Source: a virus
DNA: 41,333 nt
IMG/VR virus record: IMGVR_UViG_3300014050_000058
Coordinates: 1 to 41,333 of that record
Reading direction: 5' to 3' (one strand)
The notes below the pieces were generated by a model. It was not told the origin of the DNA. It did no database searches and saw nothing but the letters and a program-made list of their open reading frames with translations. This document shows positions 6,978-40,074 of the stretch, in pieces. Within the stretch, counting starts at the first letter, position 1, and each line of letters starts with the position of its first letter. The translations under genes were made by a program, and so were the position numbers.

Positions 6978-7736
6978 CTACCTCCTACCGTGAGTGCCCC
7001 GGAATGAAAGCTTCGAGTCAAATCCTTTCTGAGAAAACCTTTGCCCCTCTTCCACTTGGATCGGAGGGGAACTGTCGGGGTTGTCCTTCAGAGTGTTCAT
7101 AAACATCGAAATTCTTTGGTACATCTGCTCAGCTTTTACGATCTTTTGGATGCCCAGTTCCCTTAGGCAAGGCGTTTCAACCTCAATTAACAACCTTGAT
7201 GAACCAGACTCTCTGATAACAAAGACTGGTTTTTGGATCCTCTTTGACACGTCAACCAGAGTTTTCACCTCTCTATTAACGACTTCTTCGTAAGAGAGTT
7301 TATTCTTGTTTAAAAGAGGCAGGTTCCATGAAAAACCTGGCCTGATGTAATCCCAAGAGGGATGGTCTCTTGGTATCACATGGAAGGAGTGGGTAGGGTC
7401 AGAAATGTGTTCAAACGGATGCCCAAGGGGCACTTCTTTTACCAGTAGATATAAACAACCACAGACTGACAACCATCTGAACCTCCAAGGGAACTGTTTC
7501 CAACTTAATAGGTTACTGCCGTTGTAGGAGGTGAGGGAATTAAAACGGGGCAAAGGGAAACCATGATTTTGGACCTCAACTATCAATGAGTTATTTGTGG
7601 GATATGTAGACTCGGTAAGAGGTTGATCCACAAAACACTTATCTCTCTCGTATCTGTTGGATTCATCCCCACCCTCTTTGCTGTAGAGAAACTCCACATA
7701 GTCATAGTAATCCCTGAACTTAGATACTATCCTCAT
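6978..7736 (-). CDS. MRIVSKFRDYYD-family phage protein (252 aa)
   Basis: I start at ATG 7736 because the protein then opens MRIVSKFRDYYDYVEFL, a start shared by a common family of hypothetical phage proteins. An upstream extension would run through the tmRNA. Central features are CGCLYLLVKEVP and HPFEHISDPTHSFHVIP. No catalytic motif is recognised. It follows the tmRNA and its terminator, so it depends on readthrough or an unrecognised promoter. Confidence 0.75.
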   Translation of the reverse strand: MRIVSKFRDYYDYVEFLYSKEGGDESNRYERDKCFVDQPLTESTYPTNNSLIVEVQNHGFPLPRFNSLTSYNGSNLLSWKQFPWRFRWLSVCGCLYLLVKEVPLGHPFEHISDPTHSFHVIPRDHPSWDYIRPGFSWNLPLLNKNKLSYEEVVNREVKTLVDVSKRIQKPVFVIRESGSSRLLIEVETPCLRELGIQKIVKAEQMYQRISMFMNTLKDNPDSSPPIQVEEGQRFSQKGFDSKLSFRGTHGRR

Positions 7737-7753
7737 GGCAAAACTTCCTAAAT

Positions 7754-7782
7754 TTGGAAAGAGGGAGACCTTAGCCTCCCTC
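7754..7782 (-). terminator. rho-independent terminator after tmRNA
   Basis: The minus strand reads GAGGGAG-GCTAAGGT-CTCCCTC followed by TTTCC: a 7-bp stem with a short U-rich tail, directly 3' of the tmRNA coding piece. It may alternatively be part of the tmRNA structure. Confidence 0.6.
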
Positions 7783-7992
7783 AAACAGAGTCGGAGTGCG
7801 TGGCTCAAACAGCCACAACAGCCCTCTCGAACTTGACGATTTTGTTAGCGTCTATTTTGTGCTTGTGCAAGCAGCTTTCACTTGAGTGAAATCTCCACCT
7901 CGTCGAAACCTTGGCACCCCCTTGTAATGGAAGTGAGGGGAATCGAACCCCTGTCCGAGATGTCATCTTCCCAAACTACACCTAGTTTTGAG
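7783..7992 (-). ncRNA. ssrA: two-piece, circularly permuted tmRNA
   Basis: The acceptor piece comes first (minus strand), with T arm GACAGGGGTTCGATTCCCC and 3' strand CACTTCC plus A73 at 7928. After only 6 nt the coding piece starts at 7921 with GGGGGTGCCAAGGTTTCGACG, carrying the tmRNA hallmark GGTTTCGACG. The two acceptor strands pair over 7 bp and include G3-U70, the alanine identity pair. The tag frame (7805-7849) begins at a GCT resume codon and encodes ANKIVKFERAVVAV. The permuted order and ANKIV start are typical of alpha-cyanobacteria. The tag's last residues are VAV rather than the usual VAA, which should weaken ClpXP recognition. CCA is not encoded. Transcription is probably from the promoter at 9284. 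Confidence 0.88.
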
Positions 7993-8271
7993 TCATTCGG
8001 TAGGACTATCCAACATCACTATTGAGGGAGAAGAAGCACCCATTGCAGCAATGTCGTCTTCCGAGAGAGTTTCGCAGAATTCTATAAAGTCATTGAGGCC
8101 CCAATGACACGCTTCGATCCACAATTTATTCCCTTCTTTGTCACTCGTTTGGAAGGCCAATGCCATTGCGTCGGATTCCCTCTGGTGACACAGGGCATAA
8201 GTCTCTTCGTCAAGAGAGACAGGTGCTCCGTTGCTCATCGCATATAGGACTCTGAGAAACTTAGGGCTCAT
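7993..8271 (-). CDS. hypothetical protein (92 aa)
   Basis: The ATG overlaps the stop of the 8268-8456 gene (ATGA), and the stop lies right at the 5' edge of the tmRNA acceptor piece. The protein is acidic and helical (LDEETYALCHQRESDAMALAF, FIEFCETLSEDDIAAMG). I do not recognise a family. Confidence 0.7.
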   Translation of the reverse strand: MSPKFLRVLYAMSNGAPVSLDEETYALCHQRESDAMALAFQTSDKEGNKLWIEACHWGLNDFIEFCETLSEDDIAAMGASSPSIVMLDSPTE

Positions 8272-13173: not shown

Positions 13174-13251
13174 TGGAATGCATGGGAATCGAACCCACCA
13201 ATTTGCCCTGCCTTTTGAAGGTTTTGAAGCAAAGTGCCACCAAGGCACCCC
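13174..13251 (-). tRNA. tRNA-like element with duplicated anticodon-loop segment
   Basis: Acceptor GGGGTGC/GCATTCC with A73 and T arm GTGGG-TTCGATT-CCCAT are intact. The central part contains a tandem 9-nt repeat (CTTCAAAAC, CTTCAAAAG), so no standard 7-nt anticodon loop can be drawn. It is either a decayed tRNA or one with an enlarged loop; the loop reads CAA. Confidence 0.5.
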
Positions 13252-13293
13252 ATTATTGGACAATGAAACTTTTCACCTACGGTTATGAAGGTA

Positions 13294-13378
13294 TGCGTGT
13301 GGCGAGATTCGAACTCGCACTCTGCTTAACCAGAACTAGCTCCTCAAGCTAGCGGGTCTACCGTTCCCCCACACACGC
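13294..13378 (-). tRNA. tRNA-Leu(GAG)
   Basis: Class II: acceptor GCGTGTG/CACACGC with A73, anticodon stem CTAGC/GCTAG around loop TTGAGGA, long variable arm, T arm GCGAG-TTCGAAT-CTCGC. Confidence 0.92.
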
Positions 13379-13385
13379 GATCTTG

Positions 13386-13577
13386 TCAATCAAACATCCA
13401 CCATTCCCAACTCCAGGTGCGATAGTCTTTGCGACCCTCCAACTCTTTGATCACGCGATCAAGCAATTGGCCTCGCTCAGACTCAGGCATGGTGTTTTTG
13501 CCATCGGTGAGAGAGTTACCCATGGTAACAAGCTCCGAGGTTTGGAGCGAGGACAGGTTGGGCTTCTTATTTTCCAT
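13386..13577 (-). CDS. hypothetical protein (63 aa), leaderless
   Basis: ATG is 6 nt after the -10. Polar and acidic (MENKKPNLSSLQTSELVTMG) with a Trp-rich end (RTWSWEWWMFD). It is inserted between two tRNA genes. Function unknown. Confidence 0.7.
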   Translation of the reverse strand: MENKKPNLSSLQTSELVTMGNSLTDGKNTMPESERGQLLDRVIKELEGRKDYRTWSWEWWMFD

Positions 13578-13583
13578 ACCTCT

Positions 13584-13628
13584 ATCTTAGCCCTTCCTCA
13601 AGGGCTAGGCAAGGTCGGGTTACCGAAC
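13584..13628 (-). promoter_or_regulatory. leaderless-type promoter
   Basis: -35 TTGCCT (13607-13612), 17-bp spacer, -10 TAAGAT (13584-13589), 6 nt to ATG 13577. Box GGTTCGGTAACCCGACC. Confidence 0.85.
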
Positions 13629-13665
13629 CATCTGCCCCTGAAAATCGGCGTAACAAGTGTGGAAA

Positions 13666-13734
13666 TTGGGAAGGCAGGATTCGAACCTGCAATTGAGTAC
13701 TCTGCGATGGGCTTTGCCGTTTGCCTACTTCCCA
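13666..13734 (-). tRNA. short tRNA-like element, anticodon unresolved
   Basis: Acceptor TGGGAAG/CTTCCCA, A73, D arm GGC-AAACGGCAAA-GCC and T arm GCAGG-TTCGAAT-CCTGC are good. The region between D and T arms is 4 nt short and gives no proper anticodon stem (CATCGCAGAGTACTCAATT). Total 69 nt. Confidence 0.5.
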
Positions 13735-13736
13735 AA

Positions 13737-13859
13737 TTGACTCACGAGGATTCGAACCTCGACCTCTCTGCCCAAAACTACTCACAGGTACGGAACTTGG
13801 CCTTCGTTCTATCTTACTGTTTTCACCCAAAGAACATGCAGCCATAACACTTTGAGTCA
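13737..13859 (-). tRNA. oversized tRNA-like element (123 nt)
   Basis: A perfect 7-bp acceptor TGACTCA/TGAGTCA, A73 and T arm CGAGG-TTCGAAT-CCTCG enclose about 90 nt instead of the usual 40 or so. Inside are a possible GTTCT/AGAAC stem and a GCCAA/TTGGGC stem. This could be a tRNA with inserted sequence. No anticodon assigned. Confidence 0.4.
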
Positions 13860-13933
13860 TAGAGAGTTTGGGAGTCGAACCCAACAGGCCTGGGGTTTTT
13901 CCACCAGGGTGATCTCCGGATCACCTCCTCTCT
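13860..13933 (-). tRNA. tRNA-like element with enlarged anticodon loop
   Basis: At 74 nt it has tRNA size. Acceptor AGAGAG/CTCTCT, A73, D arm GTGA-TCCGGAGA-TCAC and T arm TTGGG-TTCGACT-CCCAA are good. The anticodon stem CCTGG/CCAGG closes a 10-nt loop TGGAAAAACC rather than 7 nt. Directly abuts the preceding 123-nt element. Confidence 0.5.
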
Positions 13934-14069
13934 GACTCCTTTCTTGAAACCTGCGCGTTTCTCGTTAGGAGCAGCTTCTCGCATTCGCAGACGAGTCGCC
14001 TCAGGGATTGCACCTGTATTGCAGTCTTTTCCAACTGCTACGGTCCCTTCAGGGATAGCCCCAAAGAAA

Positions 14070-14130
14070 TAGAGGGAGCAGGAATCGAACCTGCCATCTC
14101 CGTGCACGGAGTGACACCCAATCCACCTCA
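14070..14130 (-). tRNA. short tRNA-like element
   Basis: T arm GCAGG-TTCGATT-CCTGC and 3' acceptor TCCCTCT plus A73 are present. The centre is the palindrome CTCCG-TGCA-CGGAG with no 7-nt loop, and the 5' acceptor (TGAGGTG) pairs poorly. Probably decayed. Confidence 0.4.
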
Positions 14131-14193
14131 ACTTTTGTTGCCTTGCGATTAAATCGTGCCAGGGTTAGCCGGTGGAGTTAATCTTGGGGCAAA

Positions 14194-14264
14194 TTGACAC
14201 GGCAGGAATCGAACCTGCTACCGCTGACTGTTACGCCCCAGCTCTACCAATGAGCTACGTGTCG
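14194..14264 (-). tRNA. tRNA-like element with C1-A72 mismatch and disrupted anticodon stem
   Basis: Acceptor CGACACG/CGTGTCA pairs at positions 2-7 but not at 1-72. D arm GCTC-ATTGGTA-GAGC and T arm GCAGG-TTCGATT-CCTGC are canonical. The anticodon region (GGGGCGTAACAGTCAGC) does not form a 5-bp stem with a 7-nt loop. The 5' mismatch is the kind of defect a Thg1-like enzyme can correct; the anticodon defect is not. Confidence 0.5.
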
Positions 14265-14334
14265 CTCTCTCTAACGAGAAAGGGATTTACTCAGCCCCGA
14301 CCCCTGTTGAAAGTCCTGGATTGCCGGCAACTAA

Positions 14335-14412
14335 GGAAACCCTAGGGACTCGAACCCTTAGCGAAGTTCACCAACATGTTTAGATGCGGGCGCTTTGCGT
14401 AAGCAAAGTTCC
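14335..14412 (-). tRNA. tRNA-like element, anticodon unresolved
   Basis: Acceptor GGAACTT pairs fully with GGGTTTC (three G-U). T arm AAGGG-TTCGAGT-CCCTA has one mismatch. A CTTTGC-TTAC-GCAAAG hairpin sits where the D arm would be, and no standard anticodon arm follows. Confidence 0.35.
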
Positions 14413-14562
14413 TTACACTGCTTCGACAGTGATAACCGAGAGGGAACGTTTTTAGGCCACTTAAACTACCCCGCAACCATGGCTAGGAATGCCCCTGACG
14501 GGCTCAATTAATGCAGGATCCGGATTCGAACCGTGATCTTTCCCTCTTTGCCCCAAAGGGGA

Positions 14563-14636
14563 TACTCCGTGCGGGATTCGAACCCGCGATCTTCACCTTG
14601 AAAGGGTGACGGCTTAGACCGCTCGCCTAACGGAGC
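14563..14636 (-). tRNA. tRNA-Glu(TTC), copy 1
   Basis: Acceptor GCTCCGT/ACGGAGT, anticodon arm TCACC-CTTTCAA-GGTGA, T arm GCGGG-TTCGAAT-CCCGC. A partial T-arm fragment (CGGTTCGAATCCGG, near 14521-14535) lies just downstream. Confidence 0.92.
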
Positions 14637-14643
14637 ATAACAA

Positions 14644-15081: not shown

Positions 15082-15154
15082 AGCGGATGAAGGGATTTGA
15101 ACCCTCAACTTCAGTTTGGAAGACTGGGATGTTACCGTTAAACACCACACCCGC
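15082..15154 (-). tRNA. tRNA-Gly(TCC)
   Basis: Acceptor GCGGGTG/CATCCGC with T73, anticodon arm CCAGT-CTTCCAA-ACTGA (outer pair mismatched), T arm GAGGG-TTCAAAT-CCCTT. Confidence 0.85.
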
Positions 15155-15369: not shown

Positions 15370-15432
15370 TTATCCACCATTCTATTCGGAAGTCATCCGA
15401 ATGTGGGAGTATACTTTATATAAGTATACCCG
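15370..15432 (-). other. two hairpins in the tRNA precursor
   Basis: On the minus strand GTATACTT-ATAT-AAAGTATAC is followed by ATTCGGA-TGACT-TCCGAAT. These perfect stems between tRNA-like segments may guide processing. Confidence 0.45.
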
Positions 15433-15444
15433 TTTCTCCAAAGA

Positions 15445-15519
15445 TTGAGTGCCAAGATTCACACTAGAGAATCTCTTGACTGGTGACTCGGAAGTTGCAC
15501 ACTAACCGGACCACCCTCA
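15445..15519 (-). tRNA. degenerate tRNA-like element
   Basis: Acceptor TGAGGGT/GCACTCA pairs at six of seven positions with A73. The T loop is altered (GTGAATC) and its stem broken. A CTTCCGA loop-like sequence reads TCC but lacks a stem. First element after the leader; probably non-functional. Confidence 0.3.
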
Positions 15520-17445: not shown

Positions 17446-18234
17446 TCACTCCAGTCCCGAGACAAACCAATCATAAGAGATTCGACCTGGGGGCTCCCAC
17501 TCTGCCACCACCGTTCGAACGATGGGCTGCGTTGGCCTGTGTTTTTCCGGAATTTCCCTCAGAGTGATCCAAGGATTATCGGGTTCAAACACCACCTTTT
17601 GACGACGCACATAGGTTCCATGGGTGAAGAATCTCGGAAGTTGATCCCAAGGTTCTCCGATTTCTTGGAGCAAACCTTTCATCTCGTCGCAAGTTTTACC
17701 TTGAAGGAACCTGTGAGAGAAATGGTGGTGAGCCATCATGGACACCGAGTTTTTGGTGGCGTCGTTCAACCTCCAAAGAAAGTTTTTGTAAACGTGCTCC
17801 AAATCCGGGACGTTCCAGACACGGCAGTCGAACACTGGGTATTGACCCATTTTTTCTGGCAAGTACTTCGGAAGGTTGCTTGCGAAAAAAGAGCTCGCTG
17901 TGGAAGCCAACACAGAGGTCAATTTCTGGAATTTGCCACCAAACCAGTACTCTCTGTTTGAATACTGCTCTTTGTCAAGGTTCCAATATAGGGTGATCTC
18001 GTCGGATTGGCAGTAGCCAAGCAGAGCTTCGCTCTCTCCAACAAGGTGTTTGGTAGTTGCCACCATCAAGCGCACAAAACGCTCGTCAAACGGTCGTTTC
18101 AATCCCTTGGTGAATTTGCTAAAGCATTTACCGTCGATGCGAGCCATCAGAGGGAGAAAAGGGTCCGCCCGTCTCCCAGCTTCAAGCTGCTCTTGTTGCT
18201 TCAGGGTGTCTCCTAGAGTGTCGGCGTAGGTCAT
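17446..18234 (-). CDS. Thg1-like 3'-5' nucleotidyltransferase (tRNAHis guanylyltransferase family)
   Basis: A 262-residue member of the Thg1 family, which adds nucleotides to tRNA 5' ends in the 3'-5' direction. Landmarks are LMARIDGKCFSKFTKG (metal-binding Asp), LGYCQSDEITLYW (SDE catalytic pair), FDCRVWNVPD, RLNDATKNSVSMMAHHHFSH and FFTHGTYVRR. Bacterial and phage Thg1-like proteins mainly repair 5'-truncated tRNAs by templated addition. The window's tRNA-like genes with mismatched first acceptor positions make editing or repair attractive here. Last protein gene of the operon from 20839. Confidence 0.9.
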   Translation of the reverse strand: MTYADTLGDTLKQQEQLEAGRRADPFLPLMARIDGKCFSKFTKGLKRPFDERFVRLMVATTKHLVGESEALLGYCQSDEITLYWNLDKEQYSNREYWFGGKFQKLTSVLASTASSFFASNLPKYLPEKMGQYPVFDCRVWNVPDLEHVYKNFLWRLNDATKNSVSMMAHHHFSHRFLQGKTCDEMKGLLQEIGEPWDQLPRFFTHGTYVRRQKVVFEPDNPWITLREIPEKHRPTQPIVRTVVAEWEPPGRISYDWFVSGLE

Positions 18235-24471: not shown

Positions 24472-25233
24472 TCACTGAGCCATGGTGGCATCAAGGCGAA
24501 GCCCGTCTCGGAAGATTGCTTCTTGAGTGTGCCTGGGGAGTTCTCCCAGCAGGCGCAGAGAGTGCAGGGTGTTTGCACGGAACATCTTCACAAGCTCTTC
24601 ACGGATGCGCTCAACAGAAACTTTTGAGAGCATTTCGGCAGAGGACTCAGAAATAAGAGCTTCCCAAGAGTCTGCTTCTACGTCGAAGCCTTTGGTGATG
24701 TGAAATCGGAATCCCCGTGCCACTCGAAGGCCATCCTCAGCAATCCTTTCCTCAGGATTGCCCACAAAGGAGAGAACACCCTCCTCAACGTCCTTCACAC
24801 CACCCACAAGATCGACAATGTTGCCCTCAATGTCTCGGGCCAGAGCATTGCAGGTAAAGTCCCTGCGGAAAATGTCGTCCCTCAGGGAACCAGGCTTCAC
24901 CCAATCAGGGCGACGACCGTCACTGTAAGGACCGTCTTTCCGGGCCAGAACGAAGTCTGCCACCTTAGTACGGGATTGCAGGGGATGGCCCTGAGGGACC
25001 CGTGCACGGAGAGTGAGAGTCCGGAGGCTGATCTCCCTTTGTGCCGGGGTATCGTGCTTAAAGAACAGGAAACCTTGAGAGGTAAGAAACTCCTCAAGTG
25101 CATAGAAAGCAGTCTCAGCGTCCTGGAACAGGCCTTCTCGCGCTACAACGGAGAAGTCAACGTCCTTGCTGTCCAGCCCTAGCAGGCTGTCTCGGACGCA
25201 ACCACCAACCTCGTAGAAAGTGAAATCGTTCAT
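24472..25233 (-). CDS. cca: CCA-adding tRNA nucleotidyltransferase, short form, leaderless
   Basis: A 253-residue class II CCA/poly(A) polymerase. It has EVGGCVRDSLLG with KDVDFSVV (catalytic D-x-D), RRDFTCNALA, IVDLVGGVKDVEEG and RIAEDGLRVARGFRFH. Bacterial enzymes run to about 400 residues, so this copy holds head and neck but little body or tail. None of the window's tRNAs encodes CCA, so such an activity is needed for every one of them; the phage copy would secure it. Its ATG is 6 nt after the -10, indicating a leaderless message. Confidence 0.88.
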   Translation of the reverse strand: MNDFTFYEVGGCVRDSLLGLDSKDVDFSVVAREGLFQDAETAFYALEEFLTSQGFLFFKHDTPAQREISLRTLTLRARVPQGHPLQSRTKVADFVLARKDGPYSDGRRPDWVKPGSLRDDIFRRDFTCNALARDIEGNIVDLVGGVKDVEEGVLSFVGNPEERIAEDGLRVARGFRFHITKGFDVEADSWEALISESSAEMLSKVSVERIREELVKMFRANTLHSLRLLGELPRHTQEAIFRDGLRLDATMAQ

Positions 25234-36715: not shown

Positions 36716-36718
36716 TGC

Positions 36719-36742
36719 TCAGGAACCTGCAAAGTCTTTCAT
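36719..36742 (-). CDS. 7-codon leaderless mini-cistron (MKDFAGS)
   Basis: ATG lies 6 nt after the -10 TATCAT, as at the other leaderless promoters. The frame stops after seven codons, 3 nt before the next ATG (TGA-GCA-ATG). It probably loads ribosomes that then reinitiate on the DUF5662-like gene. It contains GCAGG, a weak ribosome-binding site for that gene. Confidence 0.5.
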   Translation of the reverse strand: MKDFAGS

Positions 36743-36748
36743 ACTATT

Positions 36749-36815
36749 ATGATAGTGTTTCCGCGGTGCGAAAACAAGGGTGGGAACCGAACGTTTCAGG
36801 GAGGTTTCCCGACCC
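36749..36815 (-). promoter_or_regulatory. leaderless-type promoter
   Basis: -35 TTGTTT (36772-36777), 17-bp spacer, -10 TATCAT (36749-36754). Boxes GGTCGGGAAACC and GTTCGGTTCCC. Confidence 0.85.
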
Positions 36816-36935
36816 GTGCGGAGAGGGTCCTCAGAGCCTCTCAGAGGCCTGAGAAGGCTGCCCTTGGGTAAGGGCTGAGAGAGCGGGCTGGAGCCCCTTG
36901 GAGGCGCTCTAGAGTGTTGCTCACGCAGCTTACAG
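36816..36935. other. GC-rich spacer of short inverted repeats
   Basis: No gene. Dense small palindromes (CCTCAGAGCCTCTCAGAGGCCTGAG, quoted here only in part: CAGAGCCTCTCAGAGGCC). Similar GC-rich spacers lie at 12600-12720, 38985-39090 and 41200-41333, each next to a promoter or tRNA array. Confidence 0.5.
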
Positions 36936-37007
36936 TCCGAGATGGGAATTTCGAAATCCCGACTTCTGGTCCCCAAGGCCAGCGCTCTTCCTCTGAGCTA
37001 ATCCCGG
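36936..37007 (-). tRNA. tRNA-Pro(TGG)
   Basis: Acceptor CCGGGAT/ATCTCGG, A73, anticodon arm CTGGC-CTTGGGG-ACCAG (one mismatch next to the loop), T arm GGGAT-TTCGAAA-TTCCC. Confidence 0.82.
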
Positions 37008-37074
37008 TTGGAGCCGTTTCGTCTAGTGTAAAGACCCGGCAGGCAGACCGGCAGGGGGAGACCCCTAAGTGAAC

Positions 37075-37125
37075 CTAACAGGATTCGAACCTGCAACTTC
37101 CAATTGAGTTATAAGCCCGTGTTAA
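37075..37125 (-). tRNA. tRNA-like fragment (T arm plus TAT-type loop)
   Basis: T arm GCAGG-TTCGAAT-CCTGT and 3' acceptor TAGGTTC with A73, preceded by GGG-CTTATAA-CTC resembling an anticodon arm with TAT. No D arm or matching 5' acceptor is visible, because the preceding gene ends there. Confidence 0.4.
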
Positions 37126-37262
37126 CTCATGCTTTCCAGTGTATAGGTTTTACCCTTGAAATCAACTGTGAGAGAAAGATTAACCAAAGCAGCCTGTAAC
37201 TGCTTTCTAGCTTCAGGGTCTTGCAAGATTTCCTTCATTAGCTTGGTTGATTCTACTTTCAT
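37122..37262 (-). CDS. hypothetical protein (46 aa) within the tRNA array
   Basis: I start at ATG 37262 (MKVESTKLMKEILQDPEARK), since the longer frame crosses tRNA-Gln. QLQAALVNLSLTVDFKGKTY follows. A compact basic protein embedded between tRNAs. Function unknown. Confidence 0.6.
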   Translation of the reverse strand: MKVESTKLMKEILQDPEARKQLQAALVNLSLTVDFKGKTYTLESMS

Positions 37263-37294
37263 TTTCTCAAAGTTCCGTATGGTCGGAATGGAAA

Positions 37295-37366
37295 TTCTGG
37301 AACTAGGATTCGAACCTAGATAAACTCCTTCAAAGGGAGGTGTCCTGCCAGTTAGACGATTCCAGA
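37295..37366 (-). tRNA. tRNA-Gln(TTG)
   Basis: Acceptor TCTGGAA/TTCCAGA, A73, anticodon arm CCTCC-CTTTGAA-GGAGT, T arm CTAGG-TTCGAAT-CCTAG. Confidence 0.92.
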
Positions 37367-38137: not shown

Positions 38138-38216
38138 TTTTTGCTCAGATGCTCAAAGAGTCAGAAAAACTTACCCTTTCAGCGTTACACTTGTGGTCTG
38201 AGGAGTGAATCAAAGT

Positions 38217-38305
38217 TGTATCAGGTGGGAGTCGAACCCACAATGTCAAACTTACGTCTAGCTGTTGTTTGACAGGTAGTTGTAACCGTGAGCTAGGAGA
38301 TTGTT
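38217..38305 (-). tRNA. tRNA-like element with 8-bp stem and 15-nt loop in place of the anticodon arm
   Basis: T arm GTGGG-TTCGACT-CCCAC, 3' strand CTGATAC with A73, and a TAGCTC...-type D segment. The central arm is TGTCAAAC/GTTTGACA around AACAGCTAGACGTAA. The 5' acceptor does not pair. Confidence 0.4.
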
Positions 38306-38408
38306 ATTTATTTATTTGCAACCCCATCCGTATAGGCTTACACTACACCCCCGTATTCCAGTTCCGGCACTGACGGACTTTGAAGTTCAACAACTGTTGT
38401 GTTGTTGA

Positions 38409-39966: not shown

Positions 39967-40074
39967 TGGGTGTGGACAGGATTCGAACCTGCGATGCCTG
40001 GGGCGACTGTTGTACATACAGCCCATTATACCTCTGCAGCTGGGCCCAGCTACAGCTTGCAATGAGACACACCC
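39967..40074 (-). tRNA. tRNA-Tyr(GTA), oversized (108 nt) with hairpin insertion
   Basis: Acceptor GGGTGTG/CACACCC, A73, anticodon arm GGCTGT-ATGTACA-ACAGTC, a class II variable region and T arm GCAGG-TTCGAAT-CCTGT. Between acceptor and anticodon arms an extra perfect stem CTGTAGCTGG/CCAGCTGCAG (10 bp) is inserted in the D region. All other parts are intact. Confidence 0.7.

What the first reader, a model, noticed from the sequence alone, without database searches (positions are those of the whole stretch)
13174..14412. Cluster of tRNA-like genes with sound acceptor and T arms but non-canonical anticodon arms
Seven consecutive elements (13174, 13666, 13737, 13860, 14070, 14194, 14335) keep paired acceptors, A/C73 and T loops, yet anticodon arms show a duplicated segment, 10-nt loops, deletions or replacement hairpins. 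Random decay should hit acceptors as often. Preserved acceptor/T halves (as in minihelices) suggest retained use, for example as decoys for tRNA-binding nucleases or for processing enzymes.
Basis: seen in the sequence. Interest (0 to 1): 0.7.

Follow-up and report, generated by a model that had tools for sequence, protein, structure and literature searches.

The report
Conserved tRNA-shaped RNAs lacking anticodons
A large uncultured phage carries, among its ordinary tRNA genes, a cluster of tRNA-shaped RNAs that cannot decode; the best of them is kept in related phages with matching base-pair changes and an almost unchanging inner part, so it is probably a working non-coding RNA that borrows the tRNA shape, not a dead tRNA gene.

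Summary
The elements are real. On the minus strand of 13.1-14.66 kb there are 8 T arms, against 0.01 expected in shuffles and none on the other strand. Three of the seven (13666, 13737, 14194) are clearly maintained in related large phages. 14335 has an ortholog that keeps the same odd shape. 13174 has a weak relative. 13860 and 14070 have none. The 123-nt element at 13737 is the best case. In two independent relatives its 65-nt inner part is 92% identical, while the neighbouring tRNA-Glu is about 70%, and all 25 proposed pairs hold, four through double changes. Element 13666 keeps its acceptor through two double changes. Random decay is therefore excluded for the core of the cluster. Most likely these are structured non-coding RNAs that use the tRNA body for processing and stability, as T4 RNA C appears to. 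The decoy idea is untested; decoys for anticodon nucleases are disfavoured because the anticodon loop is gone. No Rfam family matches. Function and expression are unproven.

The parts
13737..13859 (-). 123-nt tRNA-bodied RNA: acceptor TGACTCA/TGAGTCA, D-like arm, 4-bp stem at the anticodon position, ~65-nt near-invariant inner domain, T arm
   Evidence: Orthologs in G019 and G017; 25 pairs all kept, 4 with double changes
13768..13832 (-). Inner domain of 13737 (TTTGGGYGAAARCAGTAAGATAGAACGAAGGCCAAGTTCCGTAYCTGYGAGTAGTTTTGGRCAG), approximate limits
   Evidence: About 92% identical in G017 and G019
13666..13734 (-). 69-nt tRNA-like element with acceptor, D and T arms; anticodon arm replaced by an invariant 16-nt stretch
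   Evidence: 88.6% to G001 with two double changes in the acceptor
14194..14264 (-). 71-nt tRNA-like element with perfect D and T arms, first acceptor pair C-A, unpaired anticodon stem
   Evidence: 94.4% to G001; ARAGORN gives a 2-nt anticodon in both
14139..14193 (-). ~55-nt hairpin directly after the 14194 element; follows other tRNA-like elements in G017 and G019
   Evidence: folding z = -2.4
14331..14415 (-). tRNA-like element with two replacement hairpins and a T arm
   Evidence: 71.7% to G001, first hairpin one pair longer there
13860..13936 (-). tRNA-like element with 7-bp hairpin at the D-arm place and a 10-nt loop; holds a 12-nt complement of the 16S rRNA 3' end
   Evidence: no relative found
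14070..14131 (-). Short T-arm element without D arm, weak acceptor, CTCCG TGCA CGGAG hairpin
   Evidence: no relative beyond a 29-nt match at its 3' end
13174..13251 (-). T-arm and acceptor element with TTTGC/GCAAA stem and inserted CCTTCAAAAGG hairpin
   Evidence: Weak relative in G019, 67.9%
14560..14637 (-). Normal tRNA-Glu(TTC) that precedes the island in all four phages compared
13294..13378 (-). Normal tRNA-Leu(GAG) inside the cluster
24472..25233 (-). tRNA nucleotidyltransferase (CCA-adding type), possible 3'-end maturation of the elements
17446..18234 (-). Thg1-like tRNA-His guanylyltransferase

Best explanation
The cluster is an island of phage non-coding RNAs that keep the tRNA body (acceptor and T arm, mostly a D arm) but not a usable anticodon arm. 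Inferred mechanism: they are transcribed with the tRNA array, their ends are cut by tRNA-processing enzymes (RNase P and 3' nucleases, with the phage's own CCA-adding enzyme), and the folded tRNA body protects the RNA and presents an inner domain that does the work (clearest in 13737, where the anticodon loop is replaced by a ~65-nt near-invariant domain). Shown: conservation, pairing-preserving changes and island synteny. Inferred: transcription, processing, stability, and that the inner domain is the effector. Not every element need be active: 13860, 14070 and 13174 may be younger, diverging or dying members.
For: 13737 has orthologs in G019 and G017 (88.2 and 83.5% identity; inner part 92.4%), while tRNA-Glu next to it is 69.7 and 72.0%. 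25 pairs, 100% of cells paired, 4 pairs with changes on both sides; partners slid by 1-3 columns give 0 double changes and 37-52% paired. Covariance model finds only W, G017 (161 bits), G019 (156 bits); next hits are tRNAs under 32 bits. 13666: 88.6% to G001, inner CCATCGCAGAGTACTC invariant, acceptor changes T1-A72 to G-C and A5-T68 to G-C. 14194: 94.4% to G001. 14335: 71.7%, with a matched insertion on both sides of its first hairpin. The island follows tRNA-Glu(TTC) in W, G001, G017 and G019. A separate tRNA-bodied family in G001, G019 and G015 shows the same pattern: acceptor letters drift as pairs, inner domain constant. The phage encodes a CCA-adding enzyme and a Thg1-like protein.
Against: No expression data. 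Two or three sequences per family, so covariation is limited and the shuffle control is not a probability. Single-sequence folding is not unusual (z from +0.3 to -1.7 for the seven elements). 13860 and 14070 have no relatives in the loci held; 13174 only one weak one (67.9%). 14335 loses one acceptor pair in G001. 14194 has no change in its acceptor, so pairing is not tested there.
Confidence: 0.6

Rival explanations
1. Decoys or cleavage-resistant tRNA mimics: they bind host tRNA-targeting defence enzymes through the tRNA elbow and acceptor, and lack the anticodon or variable loop that would be cut.
For: Phage tRNAs do counter tRNA-cutting defences; a phage tRNA-Tyr is discussed as decoy or supplement against Septu, and T5 tRNA-Tyr resists cleavage through its variable loop (PMC13096335). 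Island contents differ between related phages, as in an arms race.
Against: Anticodon loops, the target of the best-known nucleases, are missing. In 13737 the inner domain, not the tRNA-like part, is most constrained, and acceptor letters drift as pairs. No defence partner known; host unknown.
Confidence: 0.18
2. Decaying tRNA pseudogenes, seen as intact at acceptor and T arm only because those parts are how they are recognised.
For: A real decay product exists: 37070-37118 is a tRNA-Ala remnant without anticodon arm; relatives have a normal tRNA-Ala(TGC) there. 13860 and 14070 have no relatives; 13174 is only 67.9% like its relative and its T arm is imperfect there.
Against: 13737, 13666 and 14194 are more alike between phages than most normal tRNAs (88.2, 88.6 and 94.4% against 70-85%), with paired changes that keep the stems of 13737 and 13666.
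Confidence: 0.17
3. Interrupted tRNAs: 13737 and others are tRNAs with a removable intron or missing piece, spliced to a normal anticodon arm.
For: Related phages do have tRNAs that become perfect if a ~40-nt block is removed from the anticodon stem. For window 13737 alone, one excision gives a tRNA-Gln-like arm (score 13.4, 0 of 40 shuffles reach it).
Against: The tRNA-Gln reading does not survive in the two orthologs: its stem does not pair there (alignment). Window 13737 lacks the hairpin plus CAGCAA block of the interrupted tRNAs, and a scan found that block nowhere in the window. 13666, 14194 and 14070 are too short to hold an insert.
Confidence: 0.05

Closest known systems
Phage T4 RNA C (species 1 RNA, rnaC, NC_000866 70908-71046)
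   Same: Small stable RNA made from a phage tRNA cluster; ends in a T arm (CCGGG TTCGAAT CCCGG) with an odd interior of more than 100 nt. Role unknown (PMC3014915).
   Different: No sequence match: model R1 finds nothing in the T4 region. Its acceptor is imperfect in the fold. T4 has two such RNAs; here an island of several.
Canonical phage tRNAs of the same array
   Same: Acceptor, T arm and mostly D arm; same strand and array.
   Different: No 5-bp stem with 7-nt loop and U33 in the anticodon arm.
tmRNA (tRNA-like domain without anticodon arm)
   Same: tRNA-like ends joined to a non-tRNA interior.
   Different: The window's tmRNA is elsewhere (7714-8017); no tmRNA match at the seven elements.
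Gammaherpesvirus tRNA-like RNAs (murine herpesvirus 68, from own knowledge)
   Same: Virus-encoded cluster of tRNA-like RNAs not used in decoding, some followed by hairpins.
   Different: Unrelated virus and host, other transcription and processing machinery; resemblance only, not tested.

Membership tests
Elongator tRNA | Acceptor stem and T arm | tested here: met
   weaker in 14070, 14194 and 14335.
Elongator tRNA | Anticodon arm of 5 bp with 7-nt loop and U33 | tested here: not met
   ARAGORN finds none but a 2-nt 'anticodon' at 14194; scoring; alignments.
T4 RNA C-like stable RNA | Lies in a phage tRNA cluster with T arm at the 3' end and non-tRNA interior | tested here: met
T4 RNA C-like stable RNA | Sequence or model similarity to RNA C | tested here: not met
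   R1 against the T4 region (L036): no hit up to E = 10.
T4 RNA C-like stable RNA | Accumulates as a discrete stable RNA | not testable with these tools
   No RNA data.
Selenocysteine tRNA | Match to RF01852 above its cut-off | tested here: not met
   22.9, 22.6 and 19.5 bits against 47.
tmRNA | Match to an Rfam tmRNA family | tested here: not met
   Only 7764-7996 and 7805-7976 match.
Described RNA family | Rfam hit for the 13737 RNA | tested here: not met
   Nothing above cut-off in W, G017 or G019.

The most novel reading that the evidence does not exclude
Large tRNA-rich phages keep a syntenic island that produces non-decoding, tRNA-bodied effector RNAs: the tRNA shape is a processing and stability chassis, and inner domains are swapped or added between phages.
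Probability: 0.35. Interest if true: 0.8.

Novelty: new variant of a known kind. Interest (0 to 1): 0.6.

Why it matters
Odd tRNA genes in phage arrays are normally discarded as pseudogenes or software misses. Here some are more conserved than real tRNAs, and the acceptor stems of two of them change in pairs. That gives concrete RNAs to test for a role that has been open since T4 RNA C and RNA D were found, and shows that tRNA finders overlook structured phage RNAs.

Tried and rejected
A 17-mer of element 13666 also matched L008 and L009 in the viral collection; both lie inside a protein-coding gene and are chance. Search for 13737 among 50,697 phage records: none; its inner part among E. coli genomes: none. 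Hits of 14194 to mycobacteriophage tRNA-Trp are ordinary tRNA similarity. Intron reading of 13737 rejected after aligning its orthologs. Similarity of 13737 to rRNA, sense or antisense: no more than chance. First idea that the repeat-flanked hairpins between tRNAs in relatives are split or permuted tRNA exons was dropped: the same hairpins also lie upstream of a protein gene. 37089 looked conserved, but the conserved part is the end of an upstream gene plus a normal tRNA-Ala in relatives. The models R2 and R3 found no further relatives of 13666 and 14194 beyond G001, apart from a distant analogue at L045 15530-15596.

Full report
What the window is. It is a 41,333-base virus contig with tRNA genes on the minus strand at 9-17 kb and 36-40 kb, a permuted-type tmRNA at 7714-8017, a Thg1-like tRNA-His guanylyltransferase (17446-18234), a CCA-adding-type tRNA nucleotidyltransferase (24472-25233), NAD-salvage genes and a DNA ligase. 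Relatives found with the Thg1 protein include contigs of 277 and 279 kb, so it is a piece of a large phage genome. Handles: G001 = locus L002, G017 = L043, G019 = L045, G015 = L041, G020 = L046; W = the window.

Noticed in passing
L004 10717-10835, 10940-11062 and 11181-11299 (minus; G001 36716-37298); L012 7816-7844; L015 6647-6675; L037 1495-1607 (Vibrio phage phi-ST2); many more: tRNA genes in related and unrelated large phages carry a 39-56-nt block (hairpin such as TTATCTTG..CAAGATA followed by CAGCAA), mostly in the anticodon stem between positions 28 and 29. Removing it gives good anticodon arms (11 of 14 hand-read cases with all 5 pairs, 12 of 14 with U33) with varied anticodons; looks like a short tRNA intron for which no description was found. 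Annotated as tRNA-Ile or tRNA-Val in two Vibrio phages..
   Followed up: partly
L025 1345-1460, 2990-3440; L041 14955, 15700; L049 and L051 many: The same block in circularly permuted order (arm-CAGCAAT-hairpin-arm-TTG) lies between tRNAs, and in L025 just before a start codon; in a few copies the inner hairpin is a T arm. None in the window..
   Followed up: partly
window 13919-13930 (minus, approximate), inside element 13860: AGGAGGTGATCC is a perfect 12-nt complement of the 3' end of 16S rRNA (anti-Shine-Dalgarno region); about 1.5% of shuffles of the element have any rRNA complement as long. No relative to test it..
   Followed up: partly
window 38210-38340 (minus): Conserved RNA with two interleaved stems (pseudoknot) and a T arm at its 3' end but no clear acceptor; relatives in G015, G017, G020, G019; 7 pairs change on both sides, 0 of 500 shuffles reach the score..
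   Followed up: partly
L002 9946-10063, L065 883-1001 (minus), L041 12036-12152: Another tRNA-bodied RNA family of 117-119 nt with constant ACCTCC/GGAGG stem and CGGTAAAGGACCG hairpin; acceptor letters drift as pairs..
   Followed up: partly
window 39967-40073 (minus): tRNA-Tyr(GTA)-like gene missed by ARAGORN: its D loop holds an inserted hairpin, also in G001 and G019 but not in L046..
   Followed up: partly
window 37070-37118 (minus): Truly truncated tRNA-Ala: D half joined to the T arm, anticodon arm gone; relatives have a normal tRNA-Ala(TGC)..
   Followed up: yes
window 7714-8017 (minus): Permuted-type (two-piece) phage tmRNA, 84 bits to RF04321 and 81 bits to the cyanobacterial family..
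   Followed up: no
L045 15825-15890: Weak match to an HDV-like ribozyme family (25.6 bits, cut-off 44) inside the RNA island of G019..
   Followed up: no
L005 7759-7826 (minus; G001 75758-75825): tRNA-like element of 68 nt with sound acceptor, D and T arms but a 4-bp anticodon stem closed by a 4-nt loop..
   Followed up: no
L045 14840-16130: The island of G019 holds several further T-arm elements, among them one with a long anticodon-position stem (15385-15462) and a minihelix-like one near 15100..
   Followed up: partly
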